Below are positions 49,167-55,543 of a stretch of 64,000 nucleotides of DNA, piece after piece (the first letter of the stretch is position 1; every line of letters begins with the position of its first letter). Origin of the DNA: Isoptericola jiangsuensis (GTDB lineage: Bacteria; Actinomycetota; Actinomycetes; Actinomycetales; Cellulomonadaceae); the NCBI RefSeq assembly GCF_002563715.1, contig NZ_PDJJ01000001.1, positions 1,240,001-1,304,000 on the forward strand, given 5' to 3'. The translations under genes and the position numbers were made by a program. Under the pieces are notes generated by a model, which saw nothing but the letters and a program-made list of their open reading frames with translations, searched no databases and was not told the origin of the DNA.

Positions 49167-51235
<2,069 letters not shown>

Positions 51236-51290
51236 CCGGCCACCCCTCCGGCGGTCGCCGTGGCGACCTGCCGTCGTCGCGGCACGCCGC

Positions 51291-51296
51291 TAGGGT
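51291..51296 (+). promoter_or_regulatory. -10 element (TAGGGT) for leaderless brkB-like gene
   Basis: TAGGGT lies 6 nt before GTG 51303 (4 nt before GTG 51301). Confidence 0.4.
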
Positions 51297-51302
51297 CGGC
51301 GT

Positions 51303-52328
51303 GTGCCGGAACGGATCCAACGCCTCCAGAACCTCACGGCGCGCGTCACGAGCTGGGCCAAGGACCGCCGCGAGGTCCGGTCCGTCCAGTGGTACCTCGC
51401 GCGCCGCGGCAGCCAGCTCTGCGGCGGCATCGCCTACTCGGCGCTCTTCTCCCTCGGTGCCGCCCTCACCATCGGCTTCTCCGTGTTCTCCGCGACCCTC
51501 GCCCGCCGCCCCGAGTTGCAGGACGCCATCTTCGAGCAGATCGACACCTGGCTCCCCGGACTGCTCGACACCGGTGAAGGCGGCATCGTCCCGGCGAGCC
51601 AGCTCGTCCTCGACACCGCCTGGAGCGTCACGACCGTCGTCGCTTCGATCGTGTTCCTCTGGACCGCCATCAGCTTCATGGGCGCCCTGCGCCACTCCGT
51701 GCGTTTCATGTTCGACGCGCCCGTCGTCGGCGTCAGCCCCGTCCTCAACAAGGTCTGGCAGCTCGTCGGCTTCGCCATCCTCGGCGCCATGCTGGTCGTG
51801 TCCGCCACGGCGAGCATCCTGTCGCAGACCGTCACGGGTCGCGTCGAGTCCTGGTTCGGGGAGTCCCAGGCCCTGGGCACGGTCCTCGCCGTCGGGTCGT
51901 TCGGCGTCGCCGTCCTCCTCGACGCCCTCCTCGTCTACCTCGTCATCCGCGTCGTCGCGCGCGTCCGCCCCACCCGACGTCGGGACATGCTGCTGGGATG
52001 CATGGCGACCGGCCTCGTCACCGGCAGCCTGCGCTGGGTCGGGACCGCCGCCGTCACCTCCAGCGCCGCCAACAACGCGCTGCTCGCGCCGTTCGTGACG
52101 ATCGTCGCCGTCCTGCTCCTCGTCAACTTCGTCGCCCGGGTCCTGCTCGTCGCGTGCGCCTGGATGTACGACCCGCCGCGCCTCGACGAGATCGCCCGCG
52201 CGGAGGCCGAGCTCGTCGAGATGCGACGCCGGGCCGAGGTGGAGCGCATCATCCGCCAGGGCCGCGGATCAGGGCGCCCGTACAGCCCCGTCGTGCGCGG
52301 CGTCCGTCGCGCACGCTACGCCTACTGA
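51303..52328 (+). CDS. YihY/virulence factor BrkB family membrane protein
   Basis: This 341-residue protein has six hydrophobic segments and the YihY/BrkB opening: WYLARRGSQLCGGIAYSALFSLGAALTIGFSVF. FMGALRHSVRFMFD and LLLVNFVARVLLVACAWMYDPPRLDEI follow. The family's role is not settled (an envelope or transport function). A charged cytoplasmic C-terminus (ARAEAELVEMRRRAEVERII) follows the last helix. Its 3' end faces the sdh operon across the locus-B repeats. Confidence 0.88.
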   Translation: MPERIQRLQNLTARVTSWAKDRREVRSVQWYLARRGSQLCGGIAYSALFSLGAALTIGFSVFSATLARRPELQDAIFEQIDTWLPGLLDTGEGGIVPASQLVLDTAWSVTTVVASIVFLWTAISFMGALRHSVRFMFDAPVVGVSPVLNKVWQLVGFAILGAMLVVSATASILSQTVTGRVESWFGESQALGTVLAVGSFGVAVLLDALLVYLVIRVVARVRPTRRRDMLLGCMATGLVTGSLRWVGTAAVTSSAANNALLAPFVTIVAVLLLVNFVARVLLVACAWMYDPPRLDEIARAEAELVEMRRRAEVERIIRQGRGSGRPYSPVVRGVRRARYAY

Positions 52329-52352
52329 ACGCGGGTCCGCGCAGCTCCCCGC

Positions 52353-52422
52353 GAGTCAGCGCACATCTGCGTGAGTCAGCGCAGGTTCCCGCGAGTCAGC
52401 GCAGCGCGGCGCGAGTCAGCAC
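52353..52422 (+). repeat. 20-bp-register repeat array, locus B, forward block (4 copies)
   Basis: GAGTCAGC(G/A)C starts at 52353, 52373, 52393 and 52413, exactly 20 bp apart, 25 nt after the BrkB stop. It is the same motif and orientation as at 39671-39882. A decayed unit may lie at 52333. The last copy runs directly into the left arm of the hairpin at 52423. Confidence 0.95.
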
Positions 52423-52517
52423 GGGCGGTGGTGCGTCCCGCGCGTCGTCGCGTTCACGGACCCCAGGGGGCCCTCCACCTCGGGTCTGACGACGACGCGC
52501 GGGACGCACCACCGCCC
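52423..52517. repeat. Hairpin element 1: 28-bp perfect arms around a 39-nt conserved core
   Basis: 52423-52450 is the exact reverse complement of 52490-52517. The enclosed 39 nt (52451-52489) match the reverse complement of 52750-52788 in element 2 at 36 of 39 positions. Inside the core, GGACCC-CAGG-GGGCCC can pair with one mismatch. The arms of the two elements are unrelated in sequence. The element lies between the forward and reverse repeat blocks. Confidence 0.95.
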
Positions 52518-52554
52518 TTCGACGTCTCACCCCGCGTCACACGGACGTCGCGTC

Positions 52555-52714
52555 GCGCTGACTCGCGCAGAAGTGTGCTGACTCGCGAGGACCAGCGCTG
52601 ACTGGCGTCGTGTTGCGCTGACTCGCGCAGAAGTGCGCTGACTCGCGGGTACTAGCGCTGAGTCGCGCAGACGTGTGCTGACTGGCGGGGATGAGCGCTG
52701 AGTCGCGGGACGAC
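52555..52714 (-). repeat. 20-bp-register repeat array, locus B, reverse block (8 copies)
   Basis: GYGCTGASTSGCG starts at 52555, 52575, 52595, 52615, 52635, 52655, 52675 and 52695, with no deviation from 20 bp. Units at 52555 and 52615 are identical over all 20 nt; the others share the 13-nt motif but differ in the 7-nt spacer. It ends 5 nt before hairpin element 2. Confidence 0.96.
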
Positions 52715-52719
52715 GGGGT

Positions 52720-52818
52720 GGGGTGGGGCGGGGGTGGTCCGCGCGGTCGTCAGACCGGAAGTGGAGGGCCCCCTGGGGCCCGTGAACGCGACCGCGCGGA
52801 CCACCCCCGCCCCACCCC
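52720..52818. repeat. Hairpin element 2: 30-bp perfect arms around the same 39-nt core, inverted
   Basis: 52720-52749 is the exact reverse complement of 52789-52818. The core (52750-52788) is the inverted copy of the core of element 1, differing at three positions. Its inner GGGCCC-CAGG-GGGCCC pairs perfectly (reverse strand). Core length is 39 nt in both elements. Confidence 0.95.
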
Positions 52819-52895
52819 GCCGGACGCAACCCACTGAAGCGACCCACCAGCCCGGCCCACCCACGACGGCCAGGAACGGCGAGAGCCGGGAACGA

Positions 52896-52932
52896 CGACG
52901 GCGCCGCCCCGCGGTGCGGGACGGCGCCGTCG
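52896..52932 (-). terminator. Terminator of the sdhCDAB operon
   Basis: A 17-bp stem (52896-52912 with 52916-52932, one mismatch) with a 3-nt loop begins 8 nt past the sdhB stop on the minus strand. Confidence 0.75.
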
Positions 52933-52940
52933 AGGGGCGA

Positions 52941-53708
52941 TCAGAAGGCGCGGGTGATCATCGCCCGCTTGACCTCCTGGATGGCCTTAGTGACCTCGAT
53001 GCCGCGGGGGCAGGCCTCGGTGCAGTTGAAGGTGGTGCGGCAGCGCCACACGCCTTCCTTGTCGTTGAGGATCTCGAGGCGCTGGGTGGCGCCCTCGTCG
53101 CGCGAGTCGAAGATGAAGCGGTGCGCGTTGACGATGGCGGCGGGGCCGAAGTACTGGCCGTCGGTCCAGAACACGGGGCAGGACGACGTGCACGCGGCGC
53201 AGAGGATGCACTTGGTGGTGTCGTCGAACCGGTCGCGGTCGGCCTGCGACTGGATGTGCTCGCGGCTGGGCTCGTTCCCGTTGGTGATGAGGAACGGCAT
53301 GATCTCGCGGTAGGAGGCGAAGAACGGCTCCATGTCGACCACGAGGTCCTTGACGACCGGGAGGCCCTTGATGGGCTCGACGGTGATGGGCTTGTCCGGG
53401 TTGACGTCCTTGAGGAGCGTCTTGCAGGCGAGCCGGTTGCGGCCGTTGATGCGCATCGCGTCGGAGCCGCAGACGCCGTGGGCGCAGGAGCGGCGGAACG
53501 TGAGCGAGCCGTCGATCTCCCACTTGATCTTGTGGAGGGCGTCGAGGATGCGGTCGGTCCCGTGGGCGGTGACCGTGTGCTCCTCCCACGTGGCCTCGTC
53601 GGAGATCTCGGGGTTGAAGCGGCGGATCCTGAGCGTGACCTCGAACGAGGGGATCTCGCCGGCCTTCGGCGTGGCCGCCGCGTCGGTGCTCTCGAGAACA
53701 GCAGTCAT
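52941..53708 (-). CDS. sdhB: Succinate dehydrogenase iron-sulfur subunit
   Basis: This 255-residue subunit has the [2Fe-2S] segment CAHGVCGSDAMRINGRNRLAC, then CILCAACTSSCPV and CRTTFNCTEACPRGI for the [4Fe-4S] and [3Fe-4S] clusters. It carries electrons from SdhA flavin to the membrane quinone site. Its ATG overlaps the sdhA stop (ATGA). It is the last gene of the operon, 8 nt before a hairpin terminator. Confidence 0.97.
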   Translation of the reverse strand: MTAVLESTDAAATPKAGEIPSFEVTLRIRRFNPEISDEATWEEHTVTAHGTDRILDALHKIKWEIDGSLTFRRSCAHGVCGSDAMRINGRNRLACKTLLKDVNPDKPITVEPIKGLPVVKDLVVDMEPFFASYREIMPFLITNGNEPSREHIQSQADRDRFDDTTKCILCAACTSSCPVFWTDGQYFGPAAIVNAHRFIFDSRDEGATQRLEILNDKEGVWRCRTTFNCTEACPRGIEVTKAIQEVKRAMITRAF

Positions 53709-55543
53709 CAGTACTTCCGCTCCATCGGCTCGTAGCGGGTCTGGGTGACGGACTTGGAACCCAGCACGACCTTGTAGTCGTCGAAGTTCTCGACGTGGTC
53801 GAAGTAGCCCTCGACGTGGCCGTCGGCGACGTCGGGGGCGGCCGTCGGGCGACGGTACGCCATGGTGTGCAGCATGTAGTTGGCGTCGTCGCGGTCGGGG
53901 TAGTCCTCGCGGTAGTGGCCGCCGCGGGACTCCTTGCGGTTGAGGGCCGCGAGGACGGTGACCTCGGCGATGTCGAGGAGGAAGCCGAGCTCGATGGCCT
54001 CGAGGAGGTCGGTGTTGAAGAGCTTGCCCTTGTCCTGGACGGACACGTTGCGGTAGCGCTTCTGGAGCTCCCGGATGTCGCTGAGCGCCTGGTTGAGCGA
54101 CTCTCCGGTGCGGAACACCTGGGCGTTGGCGTCCATGGTGTCCTGCAGCGCCTTGCGGACGTCGGCGACGCGCTCGCCGTCGGGCCGGTCGCGCATCTCG
54201 GCGAGCTGCGCCTCCACGCGGGCGGCGGGGTTCTCGGGCAGGTCGTGGTGCTTCTCGACGGTCTTGGCGTAGGCGGCGGCGGAACGGCCGGAGCGCTTGC
54301 CGAAGACGTTGATGTCGAGGAGCGAGTTGGTGCCGAGACGGTTGGAGCCGTGGACGGACACGCAGGCGACCTCGCCGGCGGCGTAGAGACCCTTGACGAC
54401 GTTGTGGCTGTCGCGGAGGACCTCGCCGGCGACGTTGGTGGGCACGCCGCCCATCGCGTAGTGCGCGGTGGGGAACACCGGGACGGGCTCGGTGTAGGGC
54501 TCGATGCCGAGGTAGGTGCGCGCGAACTCGGTGATGTCCGGGAGCTTGGCGTCGATGTGCGCGGGCTCGAGGTGCGTGAGGTCGAGCAGGACGTAGTCCT
54601 TGTTCGGTCCGGCGCCGCGGCCTTCGCGGACCTCGTTCGCCATGGACCGCGCGACGATGTCGCGGGGGGCGAGGTCCTTGATGGTGGGGGCGTAGCGCTC
54701 CATGAAGCGCTCGCCGTCGGCGTTGCGCAGGATGCCGCCCTCGCCGCGGGCGGCCTCGGAGAGCAGGATGCCGAGGCCGGCGAGGCCGGTCGGGTGGAAC
54801 TGGAAGAACTCCATGTCCTCCAGGGGCAGGCCGCGGCGGTAGGCCAGGGCCATGCCGTCACCGGTGAGGGTGTGGGCGTTGGAGGTGGTCTTGAAGATCT
54901 TGCCGGCGCCGCCGGTCGCGAAGACGATCGACTTGGCCTGGAAGACGTGGATCTCGCCGGTGGCGAGGTCGTAGGCGACGACTCCGGTGGCGTTGACCTC
55001 GGCGCCGTCCTCGATGTCCTCGGTGGTGAGGTCGTGGTCGGTGAGGAGGTCGAGGACGTAGAACTCGTTGAAGAACTCGACGTCCTGCTTGACGCAGTTC
55101 TGGTAGAGCGTCTGCAGGATCATGTGGCCGGTGCGGTCCGCGGCGTAGCAGGCGCGGCGCACGGCGGCCTCGCCGTGGTTGCGGGTGTGGCCGCCGAACC
55201 GGCGCTGGTCGATGCGACCCTCGGGCGTGCGGTTGAACGGCAGGCCCATGCGCTCGAGGTCGAGGACCGCGTCGATGGCCTCCTTCGCCATGATCTCGGC
55301 GGCGTCCTGGTCGACCAGGTAGTCGCCGCCCTTGATCGTGTCGAAGGTGTGCCACTCCCAGTTGTCCTCCTCGACGTTCGCCAGCGCGGCGCACATGCCG
55401 CCCTGCGCGGCGCCGGTGTGGGAGCGCGTGGGGTACAGCTTGGAGATGACCGCGGTGCGGGCCTCCTTCGAGGCCTCGAGCGCCGCGCGCATGCCGGCGC
55501 CGCCTGCGCCGACGATGACGACGTCGTACTGGTGGGTCTGCAT
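53708..55543 (-). CDS. sdhA: Succinate dehydrogenase flavoprotein subunit
   Basis: This 611-residue catalytic subunit has the FAD-binding [18 protein letters not shown]. The covalent-FAD His lies in [17 protein letters not shown], and [30 protein letters not shown] and [24 protein letters not shown] contain substrate-site residues. It oxidises succinate to fumarate. ATG 55543 is the family start; the longer open frame is sdhD region out of context. sdhD ends 56 nt upstream. Confidence 0.97.

What the first reader, a model, noticed from the sequence alone, without database searches (positions are those of the whole stretch)
52423..52818. Paired hairpins with a conserved 39-nt core but different, self-complementary 28-30 bp arms
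The cores (52451-52489 and reverse complement of 52750-52788) are 36/39 identical and exactly the same length. The arms are perfect inverted repeats within each element, yet share no sequence between elements. Ordinary copying would preserve the arms too. Perfect complementarity with changed sequence points either to strong selection on structure or to a mechanism that regenerates arms by fold-back templating. The core has its own inner hairpin (GGGCCC-CAGG-GGGCCC). Element 1 sits between the facing arrays and element 2 abuts the end of the reverse array, so arrays and hairpins form one composite locus. It could be a structured RNA, a hairpin-processing mobile element, or a recognition site for an unknown protein.
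Basis: partly seen in the sequence, partly recalled or inferred. Interest (0 to 1): 0.9.

Follow-up and report, generated by a model that had tools for sequence, protein, structure and literature searches.

The report
Gene-end hairpins with freely rewritten arms
These two hairpins belong to a family of DNA hairpins that sit just after genes in one group of actinobacteria: the loop sequence is kept while the two arms drift apart between copies yet stay mirror images of each other, which makes them a natural test case for how cells keep such arms matched.

Summary
The 39-nt core with self-complementary arms occurs at least 45 times in this genome and in 18 of 18 same-genus genomes; family-wide, in 28 of 121 genomes and 6 of 25 genera, namely Isoptericola, Promicromonospora and near kin. 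Covariation is very strong. Copies lie in sense just behind genes (72 of 86 intergenic copies; 63 of 86 between convergent genes) and recur at the same gene ends (crp-like, glpK-like, sdhB, rpoC) in different species, with diverged but matching arms. Arms are almost pure Watson-Crick. On the sense strand G.T is rarer than A.C (36 v 89 of 5,584 columns), whereas RNase P RNA of the same genus has G.U 157, A.C 1. Plain RNA-stem selection does not explain this; DNA-level fold-back correction fits but is unproven. IS200/RAYT transposase: 0 of 18 genomes. Best reading: a clade-specific, terminator-like 3'-end element with a conserved cap, not a canonical intrinsic terminator nor a REP. No Rfam family matched above its cut-off.

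The parts
52423..52517 (+). Hairpin element 1: arm 52423-52450, core 52451-52489, arm 52490-52517; begins 94 nt behind the BrkB/YihY-like gene, in its sense
52717..52821 (-). Hairpin element 2: arms 52717-52749 and 52789-52821 (one mismatch), core 52750-52788; begins 119 nt behind sdhB, in its sense
52451..52489 (+). Conserved 39-nt core of element 1 (CGTTCACG, inner hairpin with one broken pair, CTCCACCTCGGG, TCTGA)
52750..52788 (-). Conserved 39-nt core of element 2; inner hairpin intact
52330..52422 (-). Array of 5 units GCGCTGACTCGCG (minus strand, up to 2 mismatches) with 7-nt spacers, 20-nt period, between the BrkB/YihY-like gene and element 1
52555..52707 (+). Facing array of 8 units GCGCTGACTCGCG, 20-nt period, between the two hairpins
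51303..52328 (+). Gene upstream of element 1: BrkB/YihY family (Pfam PF03631)
52941..53708 (-). Gene upstream of element 2: iron-sulphur protein, succinate dehydrogenase subunit (sdhB; name recalled, Pfam Fer2_3 and Fer4)
52897..52931 (-). Plain GC-rich hairpin directly behind sdhB (GACGGCGCCG...CGGCGCCGTC), an ordinary terminator-like stem kept beside element 2
   Evidence: read

Best explanation
A clade-specific, dispersed 3'-end element. Transcription that runs past a stop codon makes a hairpin of about 28-33 bp capped by a conserved domain of about 39 nt, which acts as, or at, a transcript end (terminator, 3'-end stabiliser or read-through barrier between convergent genes). Only pairing matters in the arms, so they drift; the core is recognised as such, perhaps by a protein. 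Mismatches that arise in one arm are removed by copying from the other, most likely by fold-back template switching during DNA replication, helped by selection for pairing. Shown: the family, its structure, covariation, sense 3' position, recurrence at the same gene ends, drift with two-sided change, scarcity of wobble pairs. Inferred: terminator-like function, protein recognition of the core, template switching as the correcting process.
For: Covariation: 94.8% of cells paired (43 copies, 33 pairs), 26 pairs with two-sided change, score 0.585 v 0.135 shuffled and at most 0.110 slid. Position: upstream gene in sense for 72 of 86 intergenic copies and 63 of 86 between convergent genes (68 and 59 of 82 without the four copies fetched because they lie at sdhB; 4 further copies fell inside called genes), against 3 of 51 adjacent gene pairs convergent in the window, 3 of 17 with gaps of 100 nt or more. 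Distance from the stop for those 72: quartiles 29, 54, 95 nt; by another rule that prefers the nearest stop, 14, 32, 58 nt for 99 of 182 copies. T follows the right arm in 133 of 173 copies, background T 0.15. Same gene ends in several species: crp-like 10 copies, glpK-like 6, sdhB 6, rpoC 3 (Pfam); left-arm identity there has medians 0.53, 0.37, 0.52, 0.62 (range 0.19-1.00), with 0-3 mismatched columns per copy. At sdhB, 5 of 18 genomes have the element and none of these has another perfect stem of 10 bp or more (loop 3-12); of 13 without it, 9 have one. Arms: 61 double v 33 single differences over 21 orthologous pairs; 48 Watson-Crick doubles over 26 reciprocal nearest pairs, where about 8 doubles of any kind are expected from independent arms. 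Wobble scarce against RNase P. Direct copies of an arm beside its own hairpin, 7 left and 5 right of 173, crossed controls 0, suggest replication trouble there. Precedent: template switching homogenises inverted-repeat arms (PMC8604942, passages) and can maintain RNA hairpins (PMC8794818, abstract and one section).
Against: No U-tract: the terminator scan finds none in 52250-53000, and only 68 of 173 copies have two or more T in the first three bases. Loop far longer than in intrinsic terminators. Element 2 lies behind a plain stem that sdhB already has. 14 of 86 copies are not in sense with the called upstream gene. One copy lies inside an open reading frame in two genomes (L039, L122). The mismatch skew points to the antisense strand as the better folded one (79 v 21). 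In the 10 closest pairs single changes outnumber double ones 16 to 8, so arms are corrected stepwise, which selection alone could do. The transversion share of doubles (34 of 56) is not above the genome's own 75%. Arms were compared without gaps and delimited by a score that rewards pairing, and copies other than the pattern-found ones came in through matches to a paired model or to arm sequence, so the overall share of Watson-Crick columns is partly built in (the G.T v A.C contrast is not, as both score alike in the arm alignment). Gene calls are a simple codon score. No RNA data.
Confidence: 0.5

Rival explanations
1. A REP/BIME-like selfish or semi-domesticated palindromic repeat that spreads by copying and survives mainly in convergent gaps, where insertions do least harm; any 3'-end role is secondary.
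For: Copy number from 1 (stricter filters) to at least 45 between related genomes; subfamilies with shared arms in one genome (21 of 42 own copies; another subfamily in two named genomes); different hairpins at opposite ends of the same gap in two relatives (L026/L116, L016/L091); a whole hairpin replaced at one site (L030/L109).
Against: Strong sense orientation; the same gene ends occupied in different species, at glpK in two genera, with diverged arms; core kept in a genome with only two matches (G005, L075); no Y1_Tnp gene; no clean insertion with target duplication seen in the nine locus pairs aligned.
Confidence: 0.22
2. An antisense or independent small RNA whose antisense strand folds and works, for example to stop or trim read-through from the opposite gene.
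For: Remaining mismatches are mostly the kinds that are stable on the antisense strand (G.T, G.G, G.A, T.T): 79 v 21 after de-duplication, p 4e-9 (stability order recalled).
Against: The G.T:A.C ratio on that strand is only about 2-3 to 1, far from the 157:1 of RNase P RNA. Strand-biased mutation would give the same skew. No promoter-like site in 52250-53000 (only one promoter type covered).
Confidence: 0.1
3. A site acting as single-stranded DNA for a recombinase or other structure-reading protein, in the way integron attC sites work.
For: Structure rather than arm sequence is conserved, unpaired core bases are conserved, and wobble statistics do not look like RNA.
Against: No Y1_Tnp in 18 genomes; no match in viral contigs by exact pattern or in plasmids by blastn; position tied to gene ends. 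Linked recombinases were not searched for systematically.
Confidence: 0.08
4. Arms kept matched by selection on pairing alone; no template switching needed. (This concerns only how the arms are maintained, so it does not exclude the best explanation's 3'-end role.)
For: Singles precede doubles in the closest pairs (16 v 8); double transitions are somewhat enriched over the genome's spectrum (22 of 56 v 25%, p 0.02).
Against: RNA-level selection should leave G.U pairs on the sense strand, as in RNase P, but here A.C exceeds G.T; direct arm copies beside hairpins.
Confidence: 0.35

Closest known systems
Repetitive extragenic palindromes (REP, BIME, REPIN; also CGTC-tagged REPs)
   Same: Many dispersed palindromic copies, mostly downstream of genes, with paired copies in opposite orientation; CGTC-tagged REPs also lack a dedicated transposase (PMC3733652, passages, abstract partly)
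   Different: The CGTC REPs described there have 8-9 bp stems of family-specific sequence and an end tag; here arms are about 28-33 bp and free in sequence, and the conserved part is the loop. No Y1_Tnp gene
Intrinsic (Rho-independent) terminators
   Same: GC-rich hairpin in sense, some tens of bases after the stop codon; where the element is missing at sdhB a plain stem often stands there
   Different: No U-tract, a structured, sequence-conserved cap of about 39 nt, a much longer stem
Quasipalindromes corrected by template switching
   Same: Arms stay mirror images while changing; precedent for RNA hairpins (PMC8794818, abstract and section 8) and inverted-repeat arms (PMC8604942, passages)
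   Different: The cases seen there are scattered inverted repeats or rRNA stems, mostly with short loops; this is one family with a constant core at gene ends
Structured RNA families of Rfam
   Same: Covarying consensus structure with conserved internal-loop bases
   Different: No family reaches its cut-off; almost no wobble pairs on the sense strand

Membership tests
REP / RAYT elements | Stem sequence conserved between copies | tested here: not met
   Own copies: mean left-arm identity 0.59 (42 copies) v core 0.94 (26 copies with a 39-nt core)
REP / RAYT elements | REP-associated tyrosine transposase (Y1_Tnp, PF01797) in the genome | tested here: not met
   0 of 18 same-genus genomes; controls ring in 5 of 14
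REP / RAYT elements | Multi-copy, extragenic, downstream of genes | tested here: met
Canonical intrinsic terminator | GC-rich hairpin in sense shortly after the stop codon | tested here: met
   72 of 86; median distance 54 nt for these 72
Canonical intrinsic terminator | Short loop and run of T after the stem | tested here: not met
   39-nt loop; scan found 0 in 52250-53000; T enriched mainly at the first base, 133 of 173
Canonical intrinsic terminator | Terminates transcription | not testable with these tools
   no RNA data
Known Rfam family | Match above the family's gathering score | tested here: not met
   Searches (window 51000-54000; four loci): only matches below the gathering score
RNA stem under RNA-level selection | G.U tolerated, A.C not, on the transcribed strand | tested here: not met
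   GT 36, AC 89 of 5,584 columns; RNase P 157 v 1 of 1,771 cells in 16 genomes (its structure was predicted with G.U allowed, which favours G.U)
Template-switch-corrected inverted repeat | Both arms change together while staying complementary | tested here: met
   (stepwise in the closest pairs)
Template-switch-corrected inverted repeat | Correction happens by templated copying, not by selection | tested here: inconclusive
   wobble scarcity and direct arm copies for; stepwise changes and substitution spectrum not decisive
IS/MITE-type mobile element | Target-site duplication at clean insertions | not tested
   Nine locus pairs aligned and read by eye; none showed it, no systematic test
Integron attC site | attC boxes and an integron integrase | not tested
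   No search made; considered from recall only

The most novel reading that the evidence does not exclude
A gene-end element defined by a conserved cap on arms that carry no sequence information at all, in which replication itself keeps rewriting the arms by fold-back copying, and the folded bottom DNA strand (not the transcript) is what a still unknown protein reads; the arms act as a self-renewing scaffold.
Probability: 0.15. Interest if true: 0.85.

Novelty: new variant of a known kind. Interest (0 to 1): 0.62.

Why it matters
The usual bacterial palindromic repeat keeps its stem sequence; here the stem is free and the loop is kept. With 182 collected copies, strongly diverged arms and a constant core, the family gives a natural experiment on an open question: whether compensatory changes in hairpins arise by selection or by templated copying. 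It may also mark transcript ends in GC-rich actinobacteria, where terminators are hard to predict because U-tracts are rare (that last point is recalled).

Tried and rejected
IS200/RAYT mobilisation: Y1_Tnp absent in 18 of 18 genomes. Spread on viruses or plasmids: nothing in viral contigs by exact pattern or in plasmids by blastn; records near this genome may be left out there. Known RNA family: nothing above cut-off. Transversion-rich double changes as proof of template switching: dropped after the genome's own substitutions proved 75% transversions. Replication direction as the cause of the mismatch skew: A.C exceeds G.T in both orientations, but much more in one (23 v 3) than in the other (17 v 11; 43 copies each, origin assumed at base 1), so it may contribute and is not settled. 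Mismatch repair by NucS (family in 17 of 18 genomes) as the cause: it would predict no C.T/A.G skew (substrate range recalled), but 29 v 6 was seen. A weak blastn match in one genome of another family of the order (G033, E 1.8e-4) was not followed up. Doubling of counts: cmsearch also hits the antisense strand of each copy, so the totals 64 and 63 are not copy numbers. A first covariance model had its inner hairpin off by one column and was replaced.

Rows left out: of 154 matches I used 86 (the others are antisense self-matches or weak partial ones; L013 holds a second, partial copy not used). Of 121 rows typed were dropped as identical in sequence to a copy already held (92 new). One search found 105 stretches and listed 80. 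Of 24 orthologous hairpin pairs, 3 with low arm identity were left out of the counts; 3 of the 23 locus pairs gave no pair because their hairpins lie in opposite orientation. Copies with more than 3 mismatches were left out (173 of 182 kept); copies with arm gaps or arms over 36 nt (172 of 182 kept). Many copies are orthologues or paralogues of each other, so counts of copies are not counts of independent events.

Full report
1. What is there. The two hairpins are as described: 28-bp and 33-bp arms (one mismatch in the latter) around 39-nt cores that differ at 3 positions. Element 1 lies on the + strand behind a BrkB/YihY-like gene, element 2 on the - strand behind sdhB, with facing 20-nt-period arrays at 52330-52422 and 52555-52707. 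Both fold far better than shuffles as RNA on either strand; element 1 also as DNA. The inner ends of the arms are alike (8 of 10 bases), and the inner hairpin of element 1 has one broken pair.

2. It is a family. Searching the genome with element 1 gives 45 matches. In stretches around these places I found 43 copies at 33 places, one of them partial; a covariance model lists three further places, so there are at least 45 full copies (the totals there count both strands). On 43 copies the structure has 94.8% of cells paired and 26 of 33 pairs with two-sided change; 0 of 500 shuffles reach any of the five measures, and sliding the partners gives scores of at most 0.110 against 0.585 (the structure came from the same alignment). 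The inner 6-bp hairpin also varies with pairing largely kept (GGGCCC, GGGCGC, GGTCGC and others). What stays is CGYTCACG on one side and, mostly, CTCCACTTCGGG plus a short tail on the other.

3. Where it occurs. All 18 same-genus genomes; 28 of 121 genomes and 6 of 25 genera drawn from the family (stricter filters); 6 of 248 genomes drawn from the order, all of the same genus. One weak blastn match lies in another family (G033; not followed). A pattern scan of named genomes found 105 stretches and listed 80: 71 have a model match and belong to Isoptericola, Promicromonospora, Krasilnikoviella, Puerhibacterium, Xylanimonas or Myceligenerans; the other 9, from unrelated phyla, have none. None in viral contigs (exact pattern) or plasmids.

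4. Position. With a codon-usage gene caller on 90 copies (42 own, 44 of G012, 4 at sdhB of other genomes), 72 of 86 intergenic copies have an upstream gene on the same strand and 63 of 86 lie between convergent genes; 4 fell inside called genes. Without the four sdhB loci the figures are 68 and 59 of 82. In the window only 3 of 51 neighbouring gene pairs are convergent, 3 of 17 among those with gaps of 100 nt or more. The composite loci of this genome with copies on both strands have the + copy first and the - copy second, so the two face each other. The distance from the stop codon has quartiles 29, 54 and 95 nt for the 72. The base after the right arm is T in 133 of 173 copies (background 0.15), but there is no T-run.

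5. The same gene ends across species. Clustering of flanking proteins shows recurrent sites: behind a Crp-family regulator in 10 records (its convergent neighbour is a YjgF/RidA-family gene), behind an FGGY kinase (glpK-like) in 6, behind sdhB in 6 including this one, behind rpoC in 3 (Pfam). Left-arm identities at these sites have medians of 0.53, 0.37, 0.52 and 0.62, from 0.19 up to 1.00 (two Promicromonospora strains at glpK are identical, two Isoptericola nearly so), while each copy has 0-3 mismatched columns. At sdhB, 5 of 18 genomes carry the element and none of these has another perfect stem of 10 bp or more with a loop of 3-12; of the 13 without, 9 have such a plain stem (10-40 bp) within about 200 nt (some may overlap the end of the opposite gene, and the 40-bp one comes from the arrays). 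The loop limit means that the plain hairpin that this genome has at 52897-52931 escaped the test: here the element is additional.

6. How the arms change. 23 of 33 own loci have a matching G012 locus among 40 fetched (matched segments 82-90% identical). In 21 of 24 comparable hairpin pairs (612 arm positions, compared without gaps) 61 positions changed on both sides and 33 on one side. Across 26 reciprocal nearest pairs among 172 copies, 48 double changes keep Watson-Crick pairs, 6 do not, and 53 are single; about 8 doubles would arise from independent arms. In the 10 closest pairs singles lead 16 to 8, so change is stepwise: one arm first, then the other.

7. Why this is not ordinary RNA-stem evolution. 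Of 5,584 arm columns in 182 copies 5,374 are Watson-Crick, 36 G.T and 89 A.C on the sense strand. RNase P RNA of 16 genomes of the genus has 157 G.U and 1 A.C in 1,771 cells; its structure was predicted with G.U allowed, which inflates that contrast. The hairpin mismatches are skewed to the kinds that are stable on the antisense strand (strict, de-duplicated 79 v 21, p 4e-9; all de-duplicated 132 v 50). This could mean that the antisense strand is the one that folds, or a strand-biased mutation process; replication direction may play a part (17 v 11 against 23 v 3); I cannot separate these. Direct copies of an arm next to its own hairpin (7 left, 5 right of 173, 0 in the crossed controls) fit replication slippage at the hairpin. 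Template switching is known to homogenise inverted-repeat arms (PMC8604942: passages) and has been proposed to maintain RNA hairpins (PMC8794818: abstract and one results section). The share of transversions among double changes (34 of 56) is below the genome's own 75%, so that argument, which I first favoured, does not hold.

8. Turnover. Hairpins are gained, lost and replaced. L029/L103 differ by one hairpin, of which G012 seems to keep a piece of the left arm (read from the alignment, not tested). L030/L109 has a different hairpin at the same place. In L026/L116 and L016/L091 the two relatives have different hairpins at opposite ends of one gap. 21 of 42 own copies share arms with another own copy at 80% or more, so duplication with arms also happens. 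No Y1_Tnp gene was found in 18 genomes, and none of nine aligned locus pairs showed a clean insertion with a duplicated target.

9. Judgement. The element works like a 3'-end or terminator hairpin (inferred from position and structure) but fails the defining U-tract and short loop; it resembles REPs in layout but fails on stem conservation and transposase. The conserved cap with free arms is the unusual part. Literature: searches with genus names plus repeat or stem-loop terms, terminator and REP terms and template-switch terms listed no paper on this family among the rows shown; passages of PMC12306157 and a term search in PMC2267715 (no occurrence of the six terms) gave nothing on it either. 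The library lacks most subscription journals, so this is not proof that the family is undescribed.

Noticed in passing
window 52330-52422, 52555-52707; genome-wide: 20-nt-period arrays (13-nt GCGCTGACTCGCG plus 7 variable): two-unit pattern with up to 3 mismatches has 248 forward and 233 reverse matches in the genome against 53 and 67 for the reversed pattern. Many of the listed places have no hairpin found nearby.
   Followed up: partly
L134, L135, L139, L141, L142, L145 downstream of sdhB: Other genomes of the genus have repeats at the same gene end with a different unit (CGAGGTAG-type, GCCGAGATAGAGAGG-type), as if homogenised within each species.
   Followed up: no
L031:2375-2788 against L095:2411-2820: The block between two genes (arrays plus hairpin) is inverted relative to its flanking genes in the two relatives, as recombination between facing arrays would do.
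   Followed up: partly
L039:2427-2525 and L122:2494-2596: A copy inside an open reading frame between an alpha/beta-hydrolase and an AMP-binding domain (fusion resembling OleBC, recalled); 6 mismatched columns in this genome, 1 in G012.
   Followed up: partly
L013:2411-2601: Tandem second core with right arm but no left arm of its own, a duplication of about 89 nt.
   Followed up: no
the 182 collected copies: Mismatch skew towards kinds stable on the antisense strand (79 v 21); unexplained.
   Followed up: partly
L145 (G005), behind sdhB: A 40-bp perfect inverted repeat formed by the facing repeats themselves.
   Followed up: no
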